Shown: piece after piece, positions 1,006 through 21,446 of the stretch
How positions within the stretch are numbered: position 1 is the stretch's first letter
How the letters are laid out: the number at the start of each line of letters is the position of its first letter
IMG/VR virus record: IMGVR_UViG_3300020197_000143
Location: 1-25,998 of that record
Strand: one strand, 5' to 3'
Source of the DNA: a virus
DNA length: 25,998 bases
The notes under the pieces: model-generated
The model's input: only the letters and a program-made list of their open reading frames with translations
Told to the model about the DNA's origin: nothing
Databases searched by the model: none
Position numbers and translations under genes: made by a program

Positions 1006-2247
1006 TCAGGCGTACGCGCCCGTACCCACCATGCCCTGAATGAACCCACCCGGCCCGCGCGTCCACTGCTGCATCATCGGGTTCGCAGCAGCGCCGAACT
1101 GACGCGGATCCTTGTAGGCGTAGTCCCCGTAGCCGGCGTACGCCTCGGGGCTCATCGACTTCCAGCCGCCCATCGCGCCGACACCGTCCTGCGCGGACGG
1201 GTCGTAGTGGAAGTACATCGACGGGTCGCCCTCGCGCTGAAACACGTTCTGGTTGCCCGTCGAGCTAGGCACGAGCCTGCCCCACTGCGTCTCGAACATG
1301 TTGCCCATCGAGGTCGGGGTGGTGAGTGGGTTCCAGCCGCCCATCTGCGGCGTCGCAGGCGGTGCGCTCGGGTTGTACGGAGACGGACGCCCTTGCCGCT
1401 GGGACCGCAATGCACCAGCGGCGTTGATCTCCTGCATCTGCTGCGGCGTGGGTGGAGGAACCAGGGCAGCATGTCCCATACCACCGCCCACGCCGCCTCC
1501 GGTCTGCCAGCCGGCGTAACCGCCGCCGGGATTGCCGAACCCGTTGCCAAACATCCCGCCCCACGGGTTGAAGCCACCCTGCATCCCACCACCGGGACCG
1601 CCGAAACCGTTGCCGCCCATGCCGCTATCCAATAGCGCCTGATTCGGATTCGTGTTCGCCCACTGCTGACCCCAGTTACCGCGCTGCCCCGGCGGCAGAT
1701 TCGGCACCATGTTGCCCATGCCGCCCCACGGGTTGAACCCCGGCTCGCGCATCCCGGCGTAGTTGCCGCCAGCGGGCTCTGCCATCTGGCTGTAGTCCAT
1801 ACCGTTCGCCCGGTACGGTGCATTCTGCGCTGCCATCGCGGCGCGGCGTGCCATGTACTGCGGGTCCATCGGGCTACCGCCCTGCTGATAACTGGCCTGC
1901 GCGTTCGGGTCGTAGCTACCATCGCGCTTCGCCTGCCGGCGCTCCTGCCGCCACCCCATGCCCGCTCGGTTCGCACCCGTCGCGTTCGGATCGCCCATGT
2001 TGCCCTGCAGCCTGTCCATCCGACCCTGCAGCCTGTCCATGCGACCCTGAATACCCGCATGCTGATCGGACCCAGCACCCTTGTACTGCTCCTGCAGGTT
2101 GTACATCCGGTCCTGCATGTTCCCCATGCGGTTCTGCTGGTTCGCAAGCTGCCCCTGCTGCTCACGCCGGGATGCTCGCCAGCCCATTCCAGCCCGATTC
2201 GCGCCGAATGCGCCCTGATTCATCATGTTAGGGTCGTACATGCTCAC
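1006..2247 (-). CDS. Gly/Met/Gln/Asn-rich repetitive protein, 413 aa
   Basis: A GTG start at 2247 overlaps the stop of the upstream gene as GTGA. The protein is low complexity with internal repeats. ANRAGMGWR occurs at about residues 17 and 92, GRMDRLQ is repeated in tandem around residues 67-80, and FNPWGGM recurs in the middle. A Met/Gln/Arg N-terminal third with heptad-like spacing suggests a coiled coil; the middle is a Gly/Asn/Phe-rich disordered segment; the last 100 residues are more ordered (Tyr, Trp, Asp). No known domain is recognised. The position after the large tail protein suggests a virion-associated or DNA-ejection protein, but the sequence alone does not prove this. The antisense and shifted frames here are long only because of the base composition. 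Confidence 0.75.
   Translation of the reverse strand: MSMYDPNMMNQGAFGANRAGMGWRASRREQQGQLANQQNRMGNMQDRMYNLQEQYKGAGSDQHAGIQGRMDRLQGRMDRLQGNMGDPNATGANRAGMGWRQERRQAKRDGSYDPNAQASYQQGGSPMDPQYMARRAAMAAQNAPYRANGMDYSQMAEPAGGNYAGMREPGFNPWGGMGNMVPNLPPGQRGNWGQQWANTNPNQALLDSGMGGNGFGGPGGGMQGGFNPWGGMFGNGFGNPGGGYAGWQTGGGVGGGMGHAALVPPPTPQQMQEINAAGALRSQRQGRPSPYNPSAPPATPQMGGWNPLTTPTSMGNMFETQWGRLVPSSTGNQNVFQREGDPSMYFHYDPSAQDGVGAMGGWKSMSPEAYAGYGDYAYKDPRQFGAAANPMMQQWTRGPGGFIQGMVGTGAYA
2003..2050 (-). repeat. 21-base tandem repeat inside a coding gene
   Basis: Two near-identical 21-base units (2003-2023 and 2024-2044) are followed by the first bases of a third. They differ at one base and encode the heptapeptide GRMDRLQ twice, continuing as GNM. 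The repeat is in frame, so slippage would change heptad number without breaking the gene. Confidence 0.85.
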
Positions 2248-4328
2248 TCCGAGATTGAAGACTCGCTGAGTTCAGTCTTGGGCTCATTCCCTTGATGCTC
2301 AGTAAGGTCACAAACGATGTCGTGAATGCGAAACGGTGCCTGCTTGTACGACGCCGTCGTCGCAGCACTCGTCAGAGCGTTGGAAAACACCAGCTTGAAC
2401 TGCCGACCGTGCGCTCGCGGTGTGAACCGGCGCACGAAAAACGGCGGCTGTCGGTCCACGCCCACCGTCGTCGCCTGCGCCGACGTGCTCGCGTACACCG
2501 TGCCAACATCGGCCTCGTCGGCGTACCCGTTGTAATCCACGTACACCTGACAGCGCAGCCACCAGTTGCCACCAGACACGTCCGAGATCGGCTCGAACTT
2601 AGCGCCACTCACCGGACCACGCTCGATCGTCTCAACAGCCCGCAAATGCTTGCGGTTGGTGCTGCCGAAGTCCAGCCACGGCGTCTCCACCTGCGCGTAC
2701 ACCGTTACGTCGCTGCCCGAAGTCTCGGGCGTCAGGTGCGATGCGTCCTTGCCCTTCGTTCGGTTCGTGATCGCGACAATCGTCCCGTCCATGCGAGACG
2801 CGGCGAGATACCTCGGGATCGCCCCCGAGGTCTCAAGCGTGGCGAACCCACCGCCATACGTCGCAGGGCGATCCTCGAACCAGTACCGCTCGTTCACGTA
2901 GTCGAAAACAAAGACGGTGCCATAATTCTGCGTCTGGTCACCGCTCGTGTACGTGATGGTCTCTGCCGCAGGCAGCGCCGCAGACGGACGGGTGCCGCCG
3001 TACCAGTAGATGCGCCCATAGACCGGGTCGTGAAGCACGATACCAGTCCCGGTGTTCGACCCGATGAACTGGCGCGTCATCAACTCGCGGTAGACCTCCC
3101 GCGCGATCAGCGTGACGCGATTCCCGTCGAACACAGCAGGGCCACGCTGCGTCCAGATGTAGTGGACGCCATTCGCCACGACGACACGGTTGCTCGGCTT
3201 GCGCGCCCTGGTGCCGATGCCCTGTTCGTTCTCACGGAACGAGAACGCAGGTGTCCCACCTGTCGCGTTGCCAACAATCTGCGAGTCCTCCCGGTGAATC
3301 ACTATCGAGTCTTGAAGCGTCTTGATCTCGTTGATCGAGTTGCCAACGCCGCTGAACGTCACGAAGTTCGGCGCGGCAGTCTGCCCCTGAATCCCCGTGT
3401 GCCACTTCAGGCAGTCGCCAGCCTGCGAGTACCACACCGTCCGCGCGCCGCAGCACCCGTTCGGGTCAGTAGCGTACGCAATCCACAGCCTGCCCTTGTA
3501 GACCGTCGCCCAGACACCACGCGGGATGAGCAGATCGTCGGCTGTGTCGCTGCCAATCTGCGAAGGAGTCCCAAGCGCCGTGTTGTAGAAGATCAGACGC
3601 TTCGGCGCGGAGGTCGCGTCTACATCAATCGCAACCGGCACGCCGACGTTCGACGTGATGATAAGCAGCCGGTTCCCACCAGTAACCGCCGGGGACGATG
3701 TGTGGACACCTGCCGCAGCATAGGTGACCAACTGCTCGAAGATGAAAGCGGACCCACGGAACGAGCCACTGGTACTGTGCGTCGCCTGCGTCCCGGTCGT
3801 ATCCCGCGCCAGCATGTCAATGTAACGGAACGTGGTCGAGCCAGTCGTGCCCTCGTACGGACGCTCAAGCGTGATCGTCCATGGGCCGACGCCCGTTACC
3901 GCAGTCACCCTGTACACCGAGTCGGTAAACCCGCTCGACCCGCCGAGCATCAACTGCCCGACGACCGGCGTGTACGTCGCGATAGATGCCGAAGTGCTGT
4001 TGTTGGTGAAGGTGGTGCTACCGCTACCAGTAGCGCTGTACAGCGGGGACACCTGCTGCGCGCTGCGCGACCAGAGCAACGCATAATACTCGTTGCAGAT
4101 GATCGTCATGTCGGTGTCGCGATCTACGTCGAAGATCCAGCGCCAGATGGTCGAGCCGTAGCGCACGGCGACCTTCTCCTCGCCCTTGCGCGTCCACCAC
4201 TCGCCATCCATGCACTCGACGTTGTAGGCTCCACCGCGCATGATCGTGCCCATCTCACGATCCGTGGTGCGCTGGCCGCTGACGCCGAGGAGCGGCCCGA
4301 GTGGGACTCTACGCGACTGACGGGGCAT
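2244..4328 (-). CDS. Large beta-rich tail hub/nozzle-like protein, 694 aa
   Basis: The ATG at 4328 overlaps the upstream stop as TGATG, which fixes the start. The 694-residue product is rich in Thr, Ser, Gly, Val and aromatic residues and has repeated beta-strand-like blocks such as RLWIAYATDPNG, VHYIWTQRGPAVF and GRIYWYGGTRP. These resemble blades of a beta-propeller. The N-terminus is basic (MPRQSRRVPLGPLLGVSG). Proteins of this size and build, placed after the head-tail adaptor, are typical of podoviral tail nozzle, hub or DNA-stabilisation proteins (P22 gp10-like role). I infer that role from position, length and strand pattern, with no diagnostic motif. It could instead be a baseplate or receptor-binding component. 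Confidence 0.8.
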   Translation of the reverse strand: MPRQSRRVPLGPLLGVSGQRTTDREMGTIMRGGAYNVECMDGEWWTRKGEEKVAVRYGSTIWRWIFDVDRDTDMTIICNEYYALLWSRSAQQVSPLYSATGSGSTTFTNNSTSASIATYTPVVGQLMLGGSSGFTDSVYRVTAVTGVGPWTITLERPYEGTTGSTTFRYIDMLARDTTGTQATHSTSGSFRGSAFIFEQLVTYAAAGVHTSSPAVTGGNRLLIITSNVGVPVAIDVDATSAPKRLIFYNTALGTPSQIGSDTADDLLIPRGVWATVYKGRLWIAYATDPNGCCGARTVWYSQAGDCLKWHTGIQGQTAAPNFVTFSGVGNSINEIKTLQDSIVIHREDSQIVGNATGGTPAFSFRENEQGIGTRARKPSNRVVVANGVHYIWTQRGPAVFDGNRVTLIAREVYRELMTRQFIGSNTGTGIVLHDPVYGRIYWYGGTRPSAALPAAETITYTSGDQTQNYGTVFVFDYVNERYWFEDRPATYGGGFATLETSGAIPRYLAASRMDGTIVAITNRTKGKDASHLTPETSGSDVTVYAQVETPWLDFGSTNRKHLRAVETIERGPVSGAKFEPISDVSGGNWWLRCQVYVDYNGYADEADVGTVYASTSAQATTVGVDRQPPFFVRRFTPRAHGRQFKLVFSNALTSAATTASYKQAPFRIHDIVCDLTEHQGNEPKTELSESSISE

Positions 4329-9806: not shown

Positions 9807-10127
9807 TTACGGCGTTGGCACCGGAGAGGGCGTAGGAATGGCTTCCTGCGAATAGATCTCATCCGCGACCGCATTCATGATGTCGCGAAGTTGGTTCTTC
9901 TGGGTGGCGTTCAACTGGTTCCAGACATCTCGGCCAGCGAACTCGCGCACCAGTGAGCCATCAGTATCGAAGGTCTTGAAGAACAGGATGAACGCCGGAT
10001 CTCCCTGCGTCCGCTGGATGCACACCCGGAGTTCGTCCACCCGAACCTCGTTCTTCGTGAATGACAACCCCCATGCCACGGCGGGCACGAGGACCAAGAG
10101 CCACGCGACCCACTTCAGCTTGTTCAC
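9807..10127 (-). CDS. Exported small protein with signal peptide, 106 aa
   Basis: The ATG at 10127 overlaps the stop of the fibre gene as ATGA. Residues 1-20 (MNKLKWVAWLLVLVPAVAWG) form a signal peptide with a basic start and hydrophobic core. The mature part is polar, has a single Cys, and ends in a Pro/Thr tail (PTPSPVPTP). The core lacks a lipobox, so signal peptidase I or a retained anchor is expected. It lies between the fibre and lysis genes, so a periplasmic lysis accessory or a fibre-associated factor is possible. No family is recognised. Confidence 0.75.
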   Translation of the reverse strand: MNKLKWVAWLLVLVPAVAWGLSFTKNEVRVDELRVCIQRTQGDPAFILFFKTFDTDGSLVREFAGRDVWNQLNATQKNQLRDIMNAVADEIYSQEAIPTPSPVPTP

Positions 10128-13100
10128 AGCGGCATCCTCTCAATGGTGGCGTAAGAGCCGGTGGCAACAATGGTCAGCACACCAGCCCCGTGCGCTGCCT
10201 GCCTCAAGTCCAGAGTTCCATTCGCGTTGCCATTGAGAATGGTTCCTTCGATGAGGCACACCTGGTTGCTGACGATACCCGTATCGGCCACCCACACCTT
10301 GGTGTCATCGTCGGTGTGCCGAGCATAGTTCACGGTTGTCGTGGTTGCGGTCGCCGTTGTGAGTTGGCACTGAGTCGTCACGTCGATACTGGAGGAGGTC
10401 GCCGCCGACAAATTGAATGCGAGATCAATGTCGGTCGTAGCGGTAGACGTGGAGTAGATGAGCCTTCCCTGGATACGATAGCGCGCCCCGCTGACCATCG
10501 GGTAGCCGGTGAGTCCGGTGATATCAGCGATGTTCGTCGTGGCATTCGTCACGTCCGATGCAACCTTCTTAGTGATCGGAGCCAGATCCGCAGTAGAGCA
10601 CGCCACCTTGATCCAGTCGGAAGCGTCGGACGACCACTGCACGATGAGCGAGGATCGCGGCATAAGCACGCAATCGTTCCCCAGTTGGGTATTTGCCTGA
10701 TCCTTGATCGTAATGATGTCCGTGGTGTCCACGTTGATCACGGTGAAAACCTGACCATCCGCGACACCGTCATTGATCGCAGTGGTTGTGCTCGACGTGC
10801 GCGCAGTCGCTGCGTTGATCTTTGAAGATGTTGCGGCTGGGGATAGCGTAAATCCAGCACCAACAGTCACCGTTGCTGGCGGTGTGTTGACTGTCGTGTC
10901 GGCGTTGCGGATGCCGATGTTGTTTGTCGCCGTGGAGAGCGCCGCGATGTCCAAGCCGATGTTATTCTCAACCGAGGCGCCGGTATTAGCGACATCGTTA
11001 AACTTAAAGCCGGTGCGATTCGTGACGTTCAGCGTCCCCGTCGTCTCGGTGTAGTTGCCGACAACTTGTACCCCTATGTCTTCCAGTAGTGTCATCGTGG
11101 TGCCAGACGCATTGAGAGAAACGGTCGGATTATGTTTCAAGGACCCCACGGTAGTAACATTAACCGTACCGGATGCTCCTGTTGAACTTACCGTTGGATT
11201 ATTTAGTATTGCTATGAGCGACGATACGGGATCGGCGTCTGTGGTAGCGGTCGTGTAGGTTCTGACGTGGCGCATGAGTGAGGCGGTCGAGTAGGTGTCG
11301 GTTCCAGTTGTAGTAGAGGTTCCCTCCACGTTAATCGTGTACACCTGCGGAACATCAACACCAGACCCCGAATGCGTTAGTGCCGGAGCAAATTGGAACC
11401 CAGCGATGACTGGACCGGCGGTCGTCGTGGTTGTAGTTGGACTGAAGTTCATTCCTCGCAGCGTGCCATTCCCAGTGATGTCGAGATTAGTGGACGGCTG
11501 AAAGTCAACGACACTGACCGTGTTGGTCGTGAGATCCGCGATGCCCTCACCGATCTCCAGATAGTCGTTGATGTTCGTCGGCCCTTGCACGTCGAGGTCG
11601 AACGAGACTGGCGAAGTAGCCGGGGCGCCCGTCGCGCCAAATCGAGCCGGTCCCGCATGTCGCATCTGAGTCGTCGTACCCTCCGACAGCACCGAGATCG
11701 GATTCGTGACCACCCCAGCAAGCGCCAGATCCTCAAGCCGAACGCCGATGTAGTTCGTAATCGCGGGCGTGCCGGATGATGCTGCGGTTTCGCGCGGGGT
11801 GGCTACGCTGATCCCGGCGTAATCGGTGAGCGCGAGCGTTGCGCCAAACACCTCCTCGAATCCGGGGCTCATATGGGCTCCGTACATCTTGGCAACCGTG
11901 AGGCTCGCTGTTCCCGTCGCCGCAATCTCGGGCTGGGACAGGAATGAGATCGGCACCCAGTTGTTCTGCACCGCCGTCCCTGCCGTCTGGGCGATGGACG
12001 TGCTGTCGTAAAACGCATCCTGAAACAGCGGCCCACCTGACGTGGTGCTCGTAAACGTCGGGTCATTCAGGAAGCCAACAGCAGCGTAGAGCGCCCCACC
12101 AACCGAACCAGTTCGCGCGAGCGAACCGCGCACCGAGAAGTGAGCGATGGCAGACACGTCTTCGGTAGAGAATACCGGAGCCGACTCAACCATCGTGTAG
12201 TTCACGCCGCTGCCCGAAAGCGTCGAGGTTGGCGTGGCTTTCATCAGGATCTGAGCAGTCGTGTTCGATGGGGGGAACGACTGGTAAAGTTGGACGGTCG
12301 GCGCGTTGAGGTCGATCTCGCCGCTCGTCGTGTTGTCGCTTGTTGCGCGCAAAGTGAGCGAACTGCCCGAAGCGTTGTTGCTGCCGTAGAGCGTGCCGGT
12401 GGCACCCGTCGAAATGATCGTGTCGTTGCCGGTGCCAGCACGCCCAGCGAGAAGCGTGTTCTCCGTGCCAGCGCCGGTCTGGTCCGTGCCGCAAGAGAAC
12501 TGTTTTGAGGTGGTGTCCCAGAGCAGCTTACTCGTCAAACCGTCACAGTCAGTCGACAGTCCACCACCCTGTAACCCCTGACCGGAAGTAGTGCTCAGGA
12601 CGAGCCCAGCGTTGACCACCGTGAGTGCTGCATTGCCGTACCTCAAGATGGGATCCGTGGCCCCGGCAAGGTTACTCACAAGGTCGATGGAAGATGGACC
12701 ACCATTCCCGAGCGTGAATTTATTGACGTCAAAGATGAGTTCGTTCGGCCCACCAGTGATAGACGGGTTAACCCCGAAATTGTCGAAGGTGATGCTCGCG
12801 TTATCCGTGTCGCCCAAAGTCAGACCACTGGCGTTGAAGTCGATGGCGTTGTCTCCGAAGGAGATGGATGGGTCGGTGCCAGCCGAAGCGTTGAAGGTCC
12901 AGTTGACCGCACTGCCACTGCCCCAAGTCACGGTGGCCAACTCTGCCCCATCAACGAACAGCTCGTCTGGGTCGGGGATGGTGTTGATGCTCAAGCCAGT
13001 CCCGTCGATGTCGGGCAGCAGAAGATTGACGCCACCATTGGACAGGTCGTTCGCCGTGGTCGCCGTGGTCGCCACGATCGCCGTCGTGGCCGTGGTCGCC

Positions 13101-14641
13101 GTCGAGGCATTACCAGCAAAATTGACCGCCGTCAGGGTGTCGGTACCTGCGTTGTAGGTAAACGCAGCCTCGTCGGTAAGAGTGTCCGCGTCACTCCAGT
13201 AGGGAACGCGCGTAGCCGTACCTCCAGCGCCCGCATCTGGGACGATGGCACTAGAGCTACTCCACGAAATCGTCTTGGTCGAATTGTCAAACCGTGGAAC
13301 AGACTTGTCAGAAGGCGGAACGCTCTCCAGCACCCCGATGAGAATCGTTTCCGATGTCCCGTCGAAGAACTGAAGCGCACCACGGTTAGTCCCCCATTCG
13401 TTGTTGTCCCCTGCGATCTGTCCGAACACGGTGGTGGACGGTGCCGCGCTGTTTGGCACCTCGAACGAGTCCTTGCCGCCGAGGTCGATGGTCGCCGGCA
13501 GAGACATCGTGACGGCAGCGTTGTTTGAGCCAGACCCCGTGCTGGTGATCTCGTTCGACGTGCCTGCGACCGTCGCGACGAAGTTGCCGGTCGTGTCCGT
13601 GGACACGGCCACACTCGCACACGTCGCGGCACCGCTCGCATTCAATGAGCGCGGGAACTGATTGGTGCAACTCGTACCGGCGTAGATCGACTGCACACCG
13701 GTCGTCGTCGTATTGATCACGATACCGGTACCGAGCGCGCCCATCGCTTGCTCGTTGGTCAAAGTCCCGTTCGATGTCTGCGTGATGTAGGTCGCATCCA
13801 CCGGAGCGGCTGTGGTCAGGTACGTGTTCGTGTCAATCGAGATCGCCCCGGTGCCACCCGTCGTCTTGACGAACCCGTTGGTCGTCGTATCGAGGATGTC
13901 CGGCTTCCCATCGTCGTCGGCGTCCCCGGCATGGATCAGGTCGTAGAGGTCGTCCTGCGAGACGCCACTCGTCGTGCCCCCGTTGAAGTTGGCCGCCGAG
14001 TACGCCTCGTCCACGACTTCGATCTCGTTCGTGGTCGAGGTGTCGACCGTGGCCCACGTTGCCACGCCAGAGCCGTCTGTCTGGAGGAACTGGTTCGGCG
14101 CGCCATCGTCGGCAGGCAGAGTGAACGTCCAGTTCGCACCGAGCGCAGGCGCAGACAGCATCACGTAATTGCTGTCGTCCGTGTCGTGAAACCGAAGGTC
14201 GGTTCCGTTTCTCAAGTCGGCGTAACCGCCCTCGATAACACGAAACAGGGCAGTCGCACCAGCTCCACTCGCGTCCCTGCCGATGACAAATCCAGCGTTG
14301 GTGCTGTCGTTATTCGTGTCCACGCTGACGTATGTGCTCGTCTGCGAGTTGAGGACGAACGTACCGGCAGCCGCAGCAGTCAGCGTCGTGCCGCTGGTCC
14401 CGTCGAAGCACGCACCGTTCGCACAGTCACCGACAGCGGTGATGTCACCGCTACCGGCAGACGTGGAACAGGTGAAGTTCCCACCGCCATCGACAGCGGA
14501 GAAGAAGTCGCCGGCAGAGCACGTCTTGGCAACGACGCCACCGCCACCGGACAGTGGCCCGAATTGCGGCCCCGTGGCCCACGCCCCGGAGGTAGGCAGA
14601 GCAAGAGCCACGAGGACCGCGAGGAGAATCCATAGCGGCAT
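10124..14641 (-). CDS. Giant tail fibre/receptor-binding-like protein with signal peptide, 1505 aa
   Basis: The ATG at 14641 has a strong GGGAGGG ribosome site. The first 22 residues (MPLWILLAVLVALALPTSGAWA) form a clear Sec signal peptide ending AWA. The rest is Thr/Ser/Ala/Gly/Asn-rich and beta-like. A repeat-like region follows the N-terminus (GDITAVGDCANGACF, then TNEIEVVDEAYSAANFNGG), with TLTNEQAMGALGTGI typical of phage fibre stalks. A short low-complexity Ala/Thr segment is at about residues 512-530. The middle contains several beta-helix-like blocks. A C-terminal beta-sandwich-like domain (about the last 150 residues) ends ATGSYATIERMPL, as in trimeric fibre tips. It is probably the host-recognition fibre. 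A signal peptide is unexpected for a protein assembled in the cytoplasm, so a displayed or secreted role must be kept open. Confidence 0.85.
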   Translation of the reverse strand: MPLWILLAVLVALALPTSGAWATGPQFGPLSGGGGVVAKTCSAGDFFSAVDGGGNFTCSTSAGSGDITAVGDCANGACFDGTSGTTLTAAAAGTFVLNSQTSTYVSVDTNNDSTNAGFVIGRDASGAGATALFRVIEGGYADLRNGTDLRFHDTDDSNYVMLSAPALGANWTFTLPADDGAPNQFLQTDGSGVATWATVDTSTTNEIEVVDEAYSAANFNGGTTSGVSQDDLYDLIHAGDADDDGKPDILDTTTNGFVKTTGGTGAISIDTNTYLTTAAPVDATYITQTSNGTLTNEQAMGALGTGIVINTTTTGVQSIYAGTSCTNQFPRSLNASGAATCASVAVSTDTTGNFVATVAGTSNEITSTGSGSNNAAVTMSLPATIDLGGKDSFEVPNSAAPSTTVFGQIAGDNNEWGTNRGALQFFDGTSETILIGVLESVPPSDKSVPRFDNSTKTISWSSSSAIVPDAGAGGTATRVPYWSDADTLTDEAAFTYNAGTDTLTAVNFAGNASTATTATTAIVATTATTANDLSNGGVNLLLPDIDGTGLSINTIPDPDELFVDGAELATVTWGSGSAVNWTFNASAGTDPSISFGDNAIDFNASGLTLGDTDNASITFDNFGVNPSITGGPNELIFDVNKFTLGNGGPSSIDLVSNLAGATDPILRYGNAALTVVNAGLVLSTTSGQGLQGGGLSTDCDGLTSKLLWDTTSKQFSCGTDQTGAGTENTLLAGRAGTGNDTIISTGATGTLYGSNNASGSSLTLRATSDNTTSGEIDLNAPTVQLYQSFPPSNTTAQILMKATPTSTLSGSGVNYTMVESAPVFSTEDVSAIAHFSVRGSLARTGSVGGALYAAVGFLNDPTFTSTTSGGPLFQDAFYDSTSIAQTAGTAVQNNWVPISFLSQPEIAATGTASLTVAKMYGAHMSPGFEEVFGATLALTDYAGISVATPRETAASSGTPAITNYIGVRLEDLALAGVVTNPISVLSEGTTTQMRHAGPARFGATGAPATSPVSFDLDVQGPTNINDYLEIGEGIADLTTNTVSVVDFQPSTNLDITGNGTLRGMNFSPTTTTTTAGPVIAGFQFAPALTHSGSGVDVPQVYTINVEGTSTTTGTDTYSTASLMRHVRTYTTATTDADPVSSLIAILNNPTVSSTGASGTVNVTTVGSLKHNPTVSLNASGTTMTLLEDIGVQVVGNYTETTGTLNVTNRTGFKFNDVANTGASVENNIGLDIAALSTATNNIGIRNADTTVNTPPATVTVGAGFTLSPAATSSKINAATARTSSTTTAINDGVADGQVFTVINVDTTDIITIKDQANTQLGNDCVLMPRSSLIVQWSSDASDWIKVACSTADLAPITKKVASDVTNATTNIADITGLTGYPMVSGARYRIQGRLIYSTSTATTDIDLAFNLSAATSSSIDVTTQCQLTTATATTTTVNYARHTDDDTKVWVADTGIVSNQVCLIEGTILNGNANGTLDLRQAAHGAGVLTIVATGSYATIERMPL
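13052..13108 (-). repeat. Degenerate 9-base GC repeat in the fibre gene
   Basis: The plus strand shows repeated GCCGTGGTC-type units here. On the coding strand they give a low-complexity Ala/Thr stretch (TATTATTAIVATTATTAND). Such tracts are common in fibre stalks and can change length by slippage. Boundaries are approximate. Confidence 0.6.
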
Positions 14642-18526: not shown

Positions 18527-19878
18527 ACAAACCTCCTGAAGCCCCAGATCGGGCCTTGATCCATGTCCGCTACGTGCCTGAAGAACCTGAGCTTCGGTAC
18601 CAGGCGCTCACCCTTCACCGGGTCGAACTGCGGGCGCAGCCAGTCGTGCAAGCTCTGCACATGCCCGTCCGTAGACTTCTCGTACCTGATCCCGGCCTCG
18701 TGGAACTTCTGGAACCAGTCCATCTGCCGGTCGATGTCCACCCGGTGCTGCCCGCCGCGCTGATCCATGATCGCAACGTCCGGCTGCCGCCCGACGAACG
18801 CCCGGTGCTTCTGGATGTCCATCACCATCCGGCGAAACCCGTCGTTGGGTATCAGCGCCGCGTGGACGCAGTACCAATACTCGTCCGGGTCCACCGTGAA
18901 CCACATCGCGTGCAGCGGGCGCTTCATCGCCGGGTCGATTATCTCGACAATCGGCCACGCGCGGTACGTGTCGAAGTCAGGGACAACGTGCGTCTCGTCC
19001 GTCACGTAGTCGAACTCGAGCCCCTGCAGGTCCAAGAACTCACCGAACTCGCGCGCCTTGCGCTCCTTCGGCGGCAGAGAAGCAAGGAAGCTCTCGATGC
19101 GGTCGTGCGGCAGATAACCGCCGTGACACTCCAAGCAATTATCGTGCATCCGCGCGCCGAACACCTCGACCTTGCCATACAACGGGTGCTCCGGGTCTTC
19201 GGACGGGCGGATCAACTCGTCGAGAATCCACGCCTCCTTGAGCGGCGTCATCGTCATGATGGTCCAGCCGTTGCGCGCCATCAGGCCGCGTCGCACCGCG
19301 TTGAAGATCGTCTGCGGCGGCGGCTCGTCAAACCAGGCACCGTCCCACGGCGCCCCCTCGAACGCATCCGTAGGCTGCTGGTAGGACATCAGGTGGACCT
19401 CGGCACCCGTGACGAACTTCCACGTCACGTCGAGCCCCTGCGCGTTGCGCTTCGGCGGTCCCTTCAGCATCGAGCCGAGGCTCACGTACTCGCGGAGCTT
19501 CGGGATGATGTTGTCCCGCAAGGAGTCGAACGTCTCGCCGCCGACGAAGTACCGCTTGCCGCGCTGCTTGTCGCGCGGCCAGCGCCCGGCACCGGAGCCA
19601 CCCAGCGCCGCAGGCTTGTCGTTGAGCGCCGCGCCGATGGTGACGATGGCCCCCGTGGCCGTCTTGCCGATCTGGTTGGCGGCGATGAAGGCTCGGACCT
19701 CGGCCTGGGACTTCAGAAAGTCGACTTGGTAGGGAAGGGGCTGGAACCGCTGGAACGCGGTAGTCTTCTGGATTTCTTCGGCCTCGTGCGTCGTCTCGAC
19801 GAGTAGCTTCTTCAACTCATCGTCGGACAGGTCCGCTACGAACTTGGCCGGGTCATCAATCGCCTTGCCGCCGATCAT
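18271..19878 (-). CDS. terL: Terminase large subunit, 535 aa
   Basis: This is the ATPase and nuclease that packages phage DNA into the head. Start ATG 19878 overlaps the methyltransferase stop as ATGA. A helical N-terminus (DLSDDELKKLLVETTHEAEE) precedes LPYQVDFLKS and the Walker A region AANQIGKT (residues 66-73). Walker B is AWFDEPPP at 181-188 with Asp184 and catalytic Glu185, followed by the coupling-type IMTMTPLKEAW. The C-terminal part has nuclease-like acidic residues (VAIMDQRGG around residue 375) and DWVDCAMYLRLANL. The last 85 codons are overlapped by the AT-hook gene and read as a Ser/Arg-rich tail, which suggests the terminal segment is less constrained. A small terminase is not obvious next to it. 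Confidence 0.93.
   Translation of the reverse strand: MIGGKAIDDPAKFVADLSDDELKKLLVETTHEAEEIQKTTAFQRFQPLPYQVDFLKSQAEVRAFIAANQIGKTATGAIVTIGAALNDKPAALGGSGAGRWPRDKQRGKRYFVGGETFDSLRDNIIPKLREYVSLGSMLKGPPKRNAQGLDVTWKFVTGAEVHLMSYQQPTDAFEGAPWDGAWFDEPPPQTIFNAVRRGLMARNGWTIMTMTPLKEAWILDELIRPSEDPEHPLYGKVEVFGARMHDNCLECHGGYLPHDRIESFLASLPPKERKAREFGEFLDLQGLEFDYVTDETHVVPDFDTYRAWPIVEIIDPAMKRPLHAMWFTVDPDEYWYCVHAALIPNDGFRRMVMDIQKHRAFVGRQPDVAIMDQRGGQHRVDIDRQMDWFQKFHEAGIRYEKSTDGHVQSLHDWLRPQFDPVKGERLVPKLRFFRHVADMDQGPIWGFRRFVWSPTDSTRRQYEQKGKDWVDCAMYLRLANLTHRRLSAREDAPERSSLASTYSTQRESTRPQRRKGPALSSSYGPWEKLIQRGYS
18532..18537 (-). promoter_or_regulatory. Strong Shine-Dalgarno inside the terminase gene
   Basis: AGGAGG on the minus strand lies 5 bases before ATG 18526. 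It is inside the terminase coding frame and decides the start of the overlapping AT-hook gene. Confidence 0.85.
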
Positions 19879-21446
19879 ACCGCTACACCGAACAGCGGGT
19901 CGATCGCGGCAATCCGCGCTCGCGCAATCTCCACGTACTCGGCCTCGCGCTCGATGCCGATCAAGCGGAAGCCTTCAAGCAGCGCGGCCTTTCCGGTGCT
20001 GCCGCTGCCCATGAACGGGTCGAGTACCGTTCCACCCGGCGGCGTCACGAGGCGGCAGAGGTAGCGCATCAGGTCGGTCGGCTTGACCGTCGGGTGGTTG
20101 TTACCATCGCCACGGTCCCGCTTGTTCGCCTTTGCGCAGTAGAAGAAGCGCGCGGCGGAGCCGGAGTCGCCGTAGCCCATGTCATCCATTGGCGGTTTGT
20201 CGGTGTCGCTATGACAGTTCTTCCCGCCGCTGCGATGCCGCACGGCCACGCCCGCTTTCACATTCGGAAACAGCCCCACCACCTCGTCGCTGCCGTCGTG
20301 GATGAAATTACTCGGCCATCTTCCGGCTGCGCCGCTCCCTTGCCCGGCGGGCGTACTCGGCGTTGCGGTCTGCGATGCTAGCGTACTTCCGCTTATGCCC
20401 TGATCGGTGATCGAACATCCGCACGCAGCGCAGATTCTCAAGTCGGTTGTCGAATCCGTCGCCGTTGACGTGGTGGATTTCGTAGCCTGCCGGGATTGGC
20501 CCGTGTGCATCCTCCCAAGCGCGCCGGTGCTCAAACTGGAATCGGCGGTTCGGTCGGTCGCCGGTTCCTCCGGGAACAGTCCAACAGAGCATCCAGTATC
20601 GGCCTTGCCGGTATCGGCGCGGGCGATCTCGCCCTTTCCGCTCGTAGTCGGCACGGCAGGGCTTCCCGCAGAACTGCCCCTTGTTGCCGGTGTTCCGGGT
20701 TTCGCAGGGCTTTCCGCAAGCCCTGCACACGAATCGCAGAGGTTCTTTTCTGGTGCCCATGCGGTCGATGTAGCATCGGGCCGCTGGCCTGTCAATGCCG
20801 ATATCCGACACCCGTGGACGTTGATCGCCCCCGTCCCATGCGCGAGCACGTTCTCCGCAACGGTGCCGACCAGCGGCTTCCGCGCCACGGTGATCGGCTC
20901 CAGCGCGGGCTTGAGCGCGGTGCCCCAGCCGGACCACTGACGAGCGGCAGCGGTGGTGGCAATGTAGGTAAACGGATCGCGCCCGGACTCATCGCCCCAT
21001 CGGCCATCTCCATTACGCCTGCCATCGGCTAGTCTCGCGAGTCGTTCGCCGCCGCGCTTCATCGGGCCACGCTCACCGCTACTACCAGCCGTCTTGTCAA
21101 TCGCCTTGCTCACGTCGAGCGACTTCGGGAAACCCGAGCCGTACACCCACGCGATCATGTCGCGGATCTCGAAGCCCGCGTCCTCGATCTTGACCGCCAT
21201 GCGGTGCTGCGTGCGCGTGCCGGCGAACGCGAGCAGGTGCCCGCCGGGCTTCAGCACCCGCAGGCACTCGGCCCAGACCTCGACGCTCGGCACGTCGTAG
21301 TCCCACCGCTTGCCCATGAACGCGAGCCCGTACGGCGGGTCGGTGACGACGGAGTCTACACTAGCGGCAGGGAGAGTCCGCAGTACGTCGAGGCAGTCGC
21401 CGTGGATAATCTTGCCGCCGATCACTGGTCGCGCAGTGTCGCACAA
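19875..21446 (-). CDS. Beta-class DNA methyltransferase with overprinted insertion, 523 aa
   Basis: A DNA amino-methyltransferase (N6-adenine or N4-cytosine). Motif IV DPPYG is at residues 36-40 and motif I FMGSGSTGKAA at about 478-488, in the order of beta-class enzymes; KPTDLMRYLCRLVTPPG is motif X-like. The start is TTG 21446; GTG 21425 (V-IGGKIIHGD) is an alternative. Between GCRI (212-215) and GRWPS (375-379) lies about 160 residues of Ser/Thr/Ala/Gly-rich sequence without family character, where the DNA of this region encodes an HNH endonuclease in another frame. The frame stays open across it, so a full-length enzyme with a long loop in or near its target-recognition region can be made. 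Without the insert the enzyme would have a normal length of about 365. Probable role: self-methylation against host restriction. Confidence 0.9.
   Translation of the reverse strand: MCDTARPVIGGKIIHGDCLDVLRTLPAASVDSVVTDPPYGLAFMGKRWDYDVPSVEVWAECLRVLKPGGHLLAFAGTRTQHRMAVKIEDAGFEIRDMIAWVYGSGFPKSLDVSKAIDKTAGSSGERGPMKRGGERLARLADGRRNGDGRWGDESGRDPFTYIATTAAARQWSGWGTALKPALEPITVARKPLVGTVAENVLAHGTGAINVHGCRISALTGQRPDATSTAWAPEKNLCDSCAGLAESPAKPGTPATRGSSAGSPAVPTTSGKGEIARADTGKADTGCSVGLFPEEPATDRTADSSLSTGALGRMHTGQSRQATKSTTSTATDSTTDLRICAACGCSITDQGISGSTLASQTATPSTPAGQGSGAAGRWPSNFIHDGSDEVVGLFPNVKAGVAVRHRSGGKNCHSDTDKPPMDDMGYGDSGSAARFFYCAKANKRDRGDGNNHPTVKPTDLMRYLCRLVTPPGGTVLDPFMGSGSTGKAALLEGFRLIGIEREAEYVEIARARIAAIDPLFGVAV
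20308..20760 (-). CDS. HNH endonuclease nested inside the methyltransferase gene, 150 aa
   Basis: Read on the same strand but in another frame than the methyltransferase, ATG 20760 to TAA 20308 encodes a complete HNH protein. Residues 9-40 hold a zinc-ribbon (Cys12, Cys15, Cys31, Cys35). A typical HNH core follows: FEHRRAWEDAHGPIP (about 76-90) gives the first His, AGYEIHHVNGDGFDNRLENL (91-110) gives His96-His97, Asn99, Asn105 and Asn109, as in homing HNH_3-type nucleases. The C-terminus is basic (RRARERRSRKMAE) and its last codons coincide with the conserved GRWPS of the methyltransferase. This is a mobile homing-type nuclease that captured a place inside a host gene. No ribosome site is seen before the ATG. 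Confidence 0.88.
   Translation of the reverse strand: MGTRKEPLRFVCRACGKPCETRNTGNKGQFCGKPCRADYERKGRDRPRRYRQGRYWMLCWTVPGGTGDRPNRRFQFEHRRAWEDAHGPIPAGYEIHHVNGDGFDNRLENLRCVRMFDHRSGHKRKYASIADRNAEYARRARERRSRKMAE
20767..20795 (-). promoter_or_regulatory. Possible promoter for the nested HNH gene
   Basis: On the minus strand a perfect TTGACA (20795-20790) is followed, after 17 bases, by TGC-TACATC (20772-20767), with an extended -10-like TG. Transcription would start close to the HNH ATG, implying a leaderless or very short leader message. The -10 matches the consensus at only three of six bases. Confidence 0.35.

What the first reader, a model, noticed from the sequence alone, without database searches (positions are those of the whole stretch)
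20308..20760. Complete HNH endonuclease overprinted inside a methyltransferase gene
Seen: the same strand encodes, in two frames, a methyltransferase whose conserved blocks are interrupted at residues 215-375 and a full HNH protein with zinc-ribbon Cys12/15/31/35 and the His96-His97-Asn99 core. The methyltransferase frame stays open, giving a Ser/Thr/Gly-rich loop in the region where beta-class enzymes carry target recognition. Only about 40 bases precede the HNH ATG and nothing follows its stop before conserved sequence, so there is no space for a group I intron core. This implies a gene-in-gene homing insertion that keeps the host enzyme readable.
Basis: partly seen in the sequence, partly recalled or inferred. 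Interest (0 to 1): 0.82.

Follow-up and report, generated by a model that had tools for sequence, protein, structure and literature searches.

The report
Hidden homing nuclease inside phage methyltransferase
A phage DNA-methylating enzyme gene contains, in a shifted reading frame, a complete gene for a DNA-cutting enzyme that probably copies itself between phages without breaking its host gene; this arrangement was first published in 2025, and here it turns up in many more phages, apparently also inside self-splicing inteins.

Summary
Confirmed: on the minus strand a 150-aa HNH nuclease ORF (20760-20308) lies wholly inside a 523-aa DNA methyltransferase ORF (21446-19875); the host frame is HNH+1 and stays open. 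In the window alone that could be chance (P = 0.40); relatives settle it. Of 48 HNH clusters flanked by methyltransferase parts, 46 keep one open host frame throughout (44 in the window's phase); L002 is open with a downstream frameshift, L142 is an exception. Empty and filled alleles of the window's site are bimodal, the 3' flank is recoded so that the HNH end is written in the host's GRWPSN codons, and L107/L108 share a 95%-identical HNH in 65%-identical hosts. No intron matched.

The kind is published: the 'ShiLan domain' (PMC11855218, 2025). The window has another HNH subfamily at another site. Added here: 79 of 83 nested clusters share one phase, 33 sit in a terminase-intein-like host group, host-frame peptides lean to disorder-promoting residues, and many starts have Shine-Dalgarno matches, though not the window's. 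Homing and translation are inferred, not shown.

The parts
19875..21446 (-). host DNA methyltransferase ORF (N6_N4_Mtase), 523 aa, TTG start as listed
20802..21446 (-). N-terminal methyltransferase block (DPPY motif), residues 1-215, ending at GCRI
   Evidence: alignment with filled and empty homologues
19875..20324 (-). C-terminal methyltransferase block from GRWPSN on (HPTVKP, DPFMGSGSTG) to the stop
20308..20760 (-). overprinted HNH_3 endonuclease ORF, 150 aa, N-terminal 4-Cys cluster and HNH motif; host frame = HNH frame +1
20307..20324 (-). recoded GRWPSN codons (GGA AGA TGG CCG AGT AAT) that carry the last HNH codons and its TAA stop
20779..20789 (-). GGCCAGCGGCC motif upstream of the HNH start, shared by several filled alleles; role unknown
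20761..20801 (-). 41 nt between the GCRI codons and the HNH ATG: no room for an intron core; no Shine-Dalgarno match at this start

Best explanation
It is a mobile HNH homing endonuclease gene overprinted, without intron or intein, on the hypervariable linker of a phage beta-class-like DNA methyltransferase. Shown by sequence: two overlapping same-strand frames, empty and filled alleles, both frames kept open across divergent relatives, signs of transfer between divergent hosts, a recoded 3' junction. Inferred: the HNH is translated from its internal start, cuts empty alleles near the GCRI..GRWPAN segment, and is copied in by break repair. The filled allele would escape cutting because the linker is gone and the flank is recoded. 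The host would survive because the shifted frame reads as a stop-free, largely disordered spacer of roughly 110-120 extra residues that stays in the enzyme.
For: Open host frame: 23 of 23 loci examined (22 of the first HNH-alignment scan plus L010; redundant copies included) have 0 stops in HNH+1 over the best match and 1-12 in HNH+2. Chosen without regard to openness: of 48 HNH clusters with methyltransferase parts on both sides, 44 have +1/+1 and 0 stops, 2 have +2/+2 and 0 stops, L002 is open and then frameshifted downstream, L142 is an exception (cases with a C block upstream and an N block downstream were dropped, number not printed). Null: 83 nested clusters have 0 host-frame stops by definition, 173.6 expected under synonymous permutation; non-nested HNH ORFs show no avoidance in +1 (645 seen, 608 expected). 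Alleles: of 116 loci with both motifs, 99 have linkers of 2-53 aa and 17 of 146-165 aa, none between (redundant loci kept; about 11 distinct filled alleles). Junction: Arg of GRWP is AGA/AGG in 17 of 17 filled and 1 of 99 empty; TAA in the HNH frame there in 12 of 17 and 1 of 99. Mobility: L107/L108 HNH 95%, hosts 65% (partial hosts, both contigs are cut); over 66 pairs of 12 loci r = 0.16, rho = 0.05, p = 0.68; shared near-identical tract from the GCRI codons to just past the HNH stop. Structure: HNH mean pLDDT 84; best PDB match I-HmuI, probability 0.95 but E = 0.19. No intron match in 7 sources.
Against: No cleavage, transcript or protein data. The window's own HNH start has no Shine-Dalgarno match (dG +0.3). 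The window alone does not exclude a chance open frame. Host-frame residues are not conserved: 11 of 14 substitutions between L107 and L108 change them. The recoded junction may simply be what the HNH C-terminus needs, not an immunity device. In the methyltransferase model the low-confidence stretch (212-437) also covers conserved residues after the insert, so it is no clean proof of a disordered insert. The host enzyme might be inactive.
Confidence: 0.85

Rival explanations
1. The HNH gene sits in an intron (or the RNA is bypassed by the ribosome), so the open host frame is irrelevant.
For: HNH homing endonucleases commonly ride group I introns (PMC11855218, read).
Against: No Rfam intron match in the window and 6 related loci; 41 nt before the ATG and none after the stop; an intron would not need a stop-free host frame, yet host-frame stops are absent where many are expected.
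Confidence: 0.05
2. The open host frame is a chance by-product of high G+C; the methyltransferase is a dead gene invaded by an ordinary HNH gene.
For: For the window alone P(0 stops) = 0.40.
Against: Same arrangement in methyltransferases at 42-45% G+C (L109-L111) with 17-25 stops in the other frame over the HNH ORF; 173.6 stops expected over 83 clusters; host motifs conserved on both sides.
Confidence: 0.04
3. The nuclease is domesticated: the nested HNH is kept for a phage function rather than for selfish homing.
For: Both frames persist in many phages; hosts are DNA-acting enzymes.
Against: Patchy presence (99 of 116 sampled alleles of the site are empty); HNH and host identities uncorrelated.
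Confidence: 0.06

Closest known systems
ShiLan domain: hidden out-of-frame HNH in mycobacteriophage DNA methylases (Arsenault, Gosselin, Gogarten 2025, PMC11855218; all six parts read)
   Same: HNH in the same relative phase inside a phage DNA methylase whose frame stays open, start near the 5' end and stop at the 3' end of the insert, no intron or intein found, patchy distribution. ShiLan itself was re-read here: host = HNH+1.
   Different: Different site (in ShiLan the HNH match lies at host residues 602-770 while its GCRI..RWPTN linker at about 799-854 is empty); different HNH subfamily (30% over 120 aa); one 4-Cys cluster rather than the two zinc fingers the paper reports; ATG not GTG start; an IMG/VR virus record, not a mycobacteriophage isolate.
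Applejack methylase with out-of-frame HNH (PMC12613952; start of abstract in the search listing only)
   Same: Out-of-frame HNH in a methylase.
   Different: Cluster A1 mycobacteriophage; details not read.
Free-standing phage HNH_3 homing endonucleases
   Same: Catalytic domain (PF13392; named phage records).
   Different: Annotated as genes of their own; the nested ones share their bases with a host gene.
Inteins with homing endonucleases in phage TerL (PMC5050341; passages only)
   Same: Homing nuclease lodged in a conserved phage gene.
   Different: At the window's site no splicing domain is detected; in the terminase relatives seen here intein models match but the HNH is in another frame.

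Membership tests
ShiLan-type out-of-frame HNH insertion | insertion in a phage DNA methylase without internal stop in the host frame | tested here: met
[quoted passage not shown]
   host = HNH+1 in the window's sequence (L001) and in ShiLan
ShiLan-type out-of-frame HNH insertion | start near the 5' end and stop within the last bases of the insert | tested here: met
   ATG 41 nt after GCRI; stop inside GRWPSN
ShiLan-type out-of-frame HNH insertion | no intron or intein signature | tested here: met
   no Rfam intron match; no intein family among the Pfam matches at E <= 1 of the window's methyltransferase (HMMER filters drop most matches above 0.1)
ShiLan-type out-of-frame HNH insertion | disjunct distribution indicating homing | tested here: met
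ShiLan-type out-of-frame HNH insertion | ShiLan's own insertion site and HNH subfamily (needed for the ShiLan element itself, not for the kind) | tested here: not met
   other site, 30% identity
HNH_3 endonuclease (PF13392) | HNH_3 domain with conserved His-His-Asn residues | tested here: met
   8.8e-15; H96, H97, N99 invariant in A7
homing endonuclease | cuts the empty allele and promotes its own copying | not testable with these tools
   only indirect signs of transfer
group I or II intron | ribozyme core | tested here: not met
   no intron match in 7 sources
beta-class N6/N4 DNA methyltransferase | DPPY motif before the AdoMet-binding motif, variable recognition region between | tested here: met
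   DPPY at 36-39, DPFMGSG near residue 471; the class and its motif order are recalled, from no call

The most novel reading that the evidence does not exclude
Overprinting is a general lifestyle of phage HNH homing endonucleases: several HNH subfamilies live in a nearly fixed phase inside methyltransferases at several sites and inside terminase inteins. By synonymous choice they tune the host-frame peptide into a stop-free disordered spacer, and they end in recoded host codons that also make the filled allele immune to cutting. For the inteins this would mean that the coding sequence between the splicing blocks doubles as the endonuclease gene in another frame.
Probability: 0.6. Interest if true: 0.78.

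Novelty: new variant of a known kind. Interest (0 to 1): 0.6.

Why it matters
It points to a third route, beside introns and in-frame intein nucleases, by which a homing gene can enter a coding sequence without destroying it: be readable in two frames. It offers an explanation for long Ser/Thr/Ala-rich inserts in annotated phage methyltransferases as shadows of unannotated nucleases, gives a large natural set of overlapping genes with a known function in one frame, and makes the cost to the host enzyme and the start of internal translation directly testable.

Tried and rejected
Intron: the Rfam search of the window and six loci gave only one tRNA. A conserved zinc site in the host frame: the CxxC pairs of the window, L002, L010 and L017 follow from HNH codons and are absent in L003, so I claim no second function. 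Wobble C preference as a sign of host-frame tuning: raised against flanks only in A1 (p = 0.004), no difference in A3 and A4, reversed in A5 (p = 0.0009); what was constant in all four families was depletion of G at fourfold sites. Hydropathy of the host frame: no difference (t = -1.0). Disorder-promoting residues are enriched at equal G+C (t = 8.1, n = 180; within A1, A3, A4 t = 3.9, 4.5, 5.1; A5 reversed, t = -3.3, with only 3 controls; the +2 frame shows a slight fall instead). In that test L107 and L103 (A1) and L287 (A5) stood among the controls although they are nested or in a host remnant, and related clusters are not independent, so the t values overstate. Search of bacterial and archaeal genomes with A1 found no relative; with A4 one locus. 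PDB search by sequence with the HNH profile found nothing. L172 (+2) was not followed up and is doubtful; L202 enters twice because a stop splits its HNH, so 83 is slightly too high. The +1 frame of the nested group as a whole holds 60 stops (197.4 expected), which I attribute to the four +2-phase clusters. L158 and L168 were left out of the start-site test because the start pattern did not match; L103, L107 and L108 were added by hand. L106 was left out of the identity comparison because its motif was not found. Literature. In these listings (one search showed 20 of 173) I saw no paper on an out-of-frame HNH in a terminase intein, but the preprint 10.1101/2025.01.02.630785 on non-canonical intein architecture, cited in PMC11855218, is not held and may contain it.

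Full report
What is there. The window is a 25,998-base virus record. Of 10 neighbouring ORFs scanned, four match PHROG head, connector or tail families. On the minus strand a methyltransferase ORF of 523 aa (21446-19875) is open throughout, and a complete HNH ORF of 150 aa (20760-20308) lies inside it in another frame. Pfam: PF01555 1.4e-32 and PF13392 8.8e-15. The same proteins at 100% are in a second contig, L001.

Relatives at the same site. L003, L010 and L017 carry HNHs of 51-59% identity in methyltransferases between GCRI and GRWP(S/A)N; L002 (61%) carries one elsewhere in a methyltransferase, before RFFYCAKAS, in the same phase. A scan with the HNH alignment gave 22 loci. In these and L010 (23 loci, redundant copies included) the frame HNH+1 has no stop over the match, while HNH+2 has 1 to 12. 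In L103 and L104 the host is a short methyltransferase remnant of 201 aa.

Empty and filled alleles. In the loci held, 116 ORFs had both motifs: 99 with a linker of 2-53 aa and 17 with 146-165 aa (redundant copies kept, about 11 distinct filled alleles; L099 and L106 are also filled but were missed by the motif). The linker of empty alleles is hypervariable, so the cassette replaces it rather than adding to a constant sequence. All 17 long-linker loci carry the HNH family (15; L166 and L173 are the contigs of L102 and L100).

Junction. The HNH C-terminus and stop are written in or beside the host's GRWPSN codons. Arg is AGA or AGG in 17 of 17 filled and AGA in 1 of 99 empty alleles; the TAA of the HNH frame is present at that place in 12 of 17 and 1 of 99. 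In L094 and L101 the stop is TAG made by GGT-AGG. L107 and L108 share a near-identical tract that starts at the GCRI codons and ends just after the HNH stop, while their (cut) methyltransferases are 65% identical and their HNHs 95%. I infer that the recoded flank travels with the cassette and may protect the filled allele from cutting; it may also merely serve the HNH C-terminus.

Is the open host frame more than chance? For the window alone, no (P = 0.40). For the set, yes. After three more scans with other HNH families, the 306 loci held contained 247 HNH ORFs in 186 clusters at 90% identity. Nested clusters (0 stops in one other same-strand frame, at least 50 host codons before and 30 after): 79 in +1 and 4 in +2. 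By family: A1 14 of 22, A3 26 of 43, A4 11 of 83, A5 30 of 33, and 2 of 5 without a family. Of the 8 A1 clusters not counted, L107 is nested but also open antisense, L103 sits in a host remnant, and the other six are distant relatives (profile score at most 68.2, against 227.6 and 212.4 for these two). Synonymous permutation predicts 173.6 stops in the 83 host frames; there are none, by the definition of nested. To avoid that circularity I took all HNH clusters with methyltransferase parts on both sides: 44 of 48 have +1 on both sides with 0 stops, 2 have +2 with 0 stops, L002 is open but its host is frameshifted downstream, and L142 is an exception with a different frame upstream. Non-nested HNH ORFs show no stop avoidance in +1 (645 seen, 608 expected).

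Hosts. 49 of the 83 clusters are in methyltransferases, 33 fall in one host group joined by sequence similarity, many with intein-like ends, and 1 is unclear (4 of the 33 also match the methyltransferase profile, perhaps through the insert). NCBIfam on 8 of that group: intein C-terminal model above its cut-off in 8 of 8, N-terminal above in 5 of 8; a terminase model is listed in 6 of 8 but above its cut-off only in L274. Seven named isolates were re-read; all have an annotated host CDS without stops and host = HNH+1: ShiLan, Starcevich, Cr-LKS3 and BUCT618 methyltransferases, and TJE1, Highwayman and MD07 large terminases. Some single methyltransferase ORFs hold two nested HNHs (L145, L147, L128).

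How it may be expressed. For 15 starts of the window's family the median pairing energy with the anti-Shine-Dalgarno end is -5.9 against -2.6 for 1404 out-of-frame ATGs in hosts (p = 0.0023); 60% are below -5 against 18.5%. L107 and L108 are near-copies, and the window's own start is not among the strong ones (+0.3). This offers ordinary internal initiation for many relatives, where the published case invoked leaderless initiation.

What the host frame becomes. AlphaFold gives the HNH mean pLDDT 84; its best PDB match is the homing endonuclease I-HmuI at E = 0.19, also the entry that PMC11855218 reports for ShiLan's HNH. The methyltransferase model has ordered core blocks and residues 212-437 below 50, which includes conserved residues after the insert, on a shallow 15-row alignment. 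The shadow peptides are richer in disorder-promoting residues than the same frame of non-nested HNHs at equal G+C in three of four families, the fourth (reversed) having only three controls. The sequence itself is free: between L107 and L108, 14 substitutions, 7 silent for HNH and 11 changing the host frame, with no stop in either host frame.

Comparison with what is known. Arsenault et al. 2025 (PMC11855218, read whole) described this kind in mycobacteriophage methylases, after PMC9957025 (2023; passages only) had shown the patchy distribution. The window is therefore not a new kind. It differs in site, HNH subfamily (30% to ShiLan's) and source.

Noticed in passing
L004 2809-3624, L006 2923-3546, L274, L302, L158 and others: Terminase-type ORFs with intein splicing models whose middle is overprinted by an HNH ORF in another frame (33 clusters in this host group).
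   Followed up: partly
L109 588-1409 (same contig as L113); L128 1640-2375: Methyltransferase ORFs with intein-like ends (by eye only; NCBIfam intein models did not match) whose HNH is nested in the rarer phase, host = HNH+2.
   Followed up: partly
L145, L147, L128 (host ORFs 1139-3565, 1505-3592, 1010-3664): Single methyltransferase ORFs that carry two different nested HNH genes.
   Followed up: no
L091 1896-2501 (Escherichia phage BUCT618): A nested HNH of another type (PF13391 and PF01844) near methyltransferase residue 118; annotated only as one methyltransferase.
   Followed up: partly
window 20789-20779 (-) and upstream of the HNH in L097, L100, L101, L102: GGCCArCGGCC motif 5' of the HNH start in 5 of 14 listed loci (L010 has it with one mismatch); role unknown.
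   Followed up: no
window 10124-14641 (-): A 1505-aa ORF without any PHROG match at 0.001.
   Followed up: no
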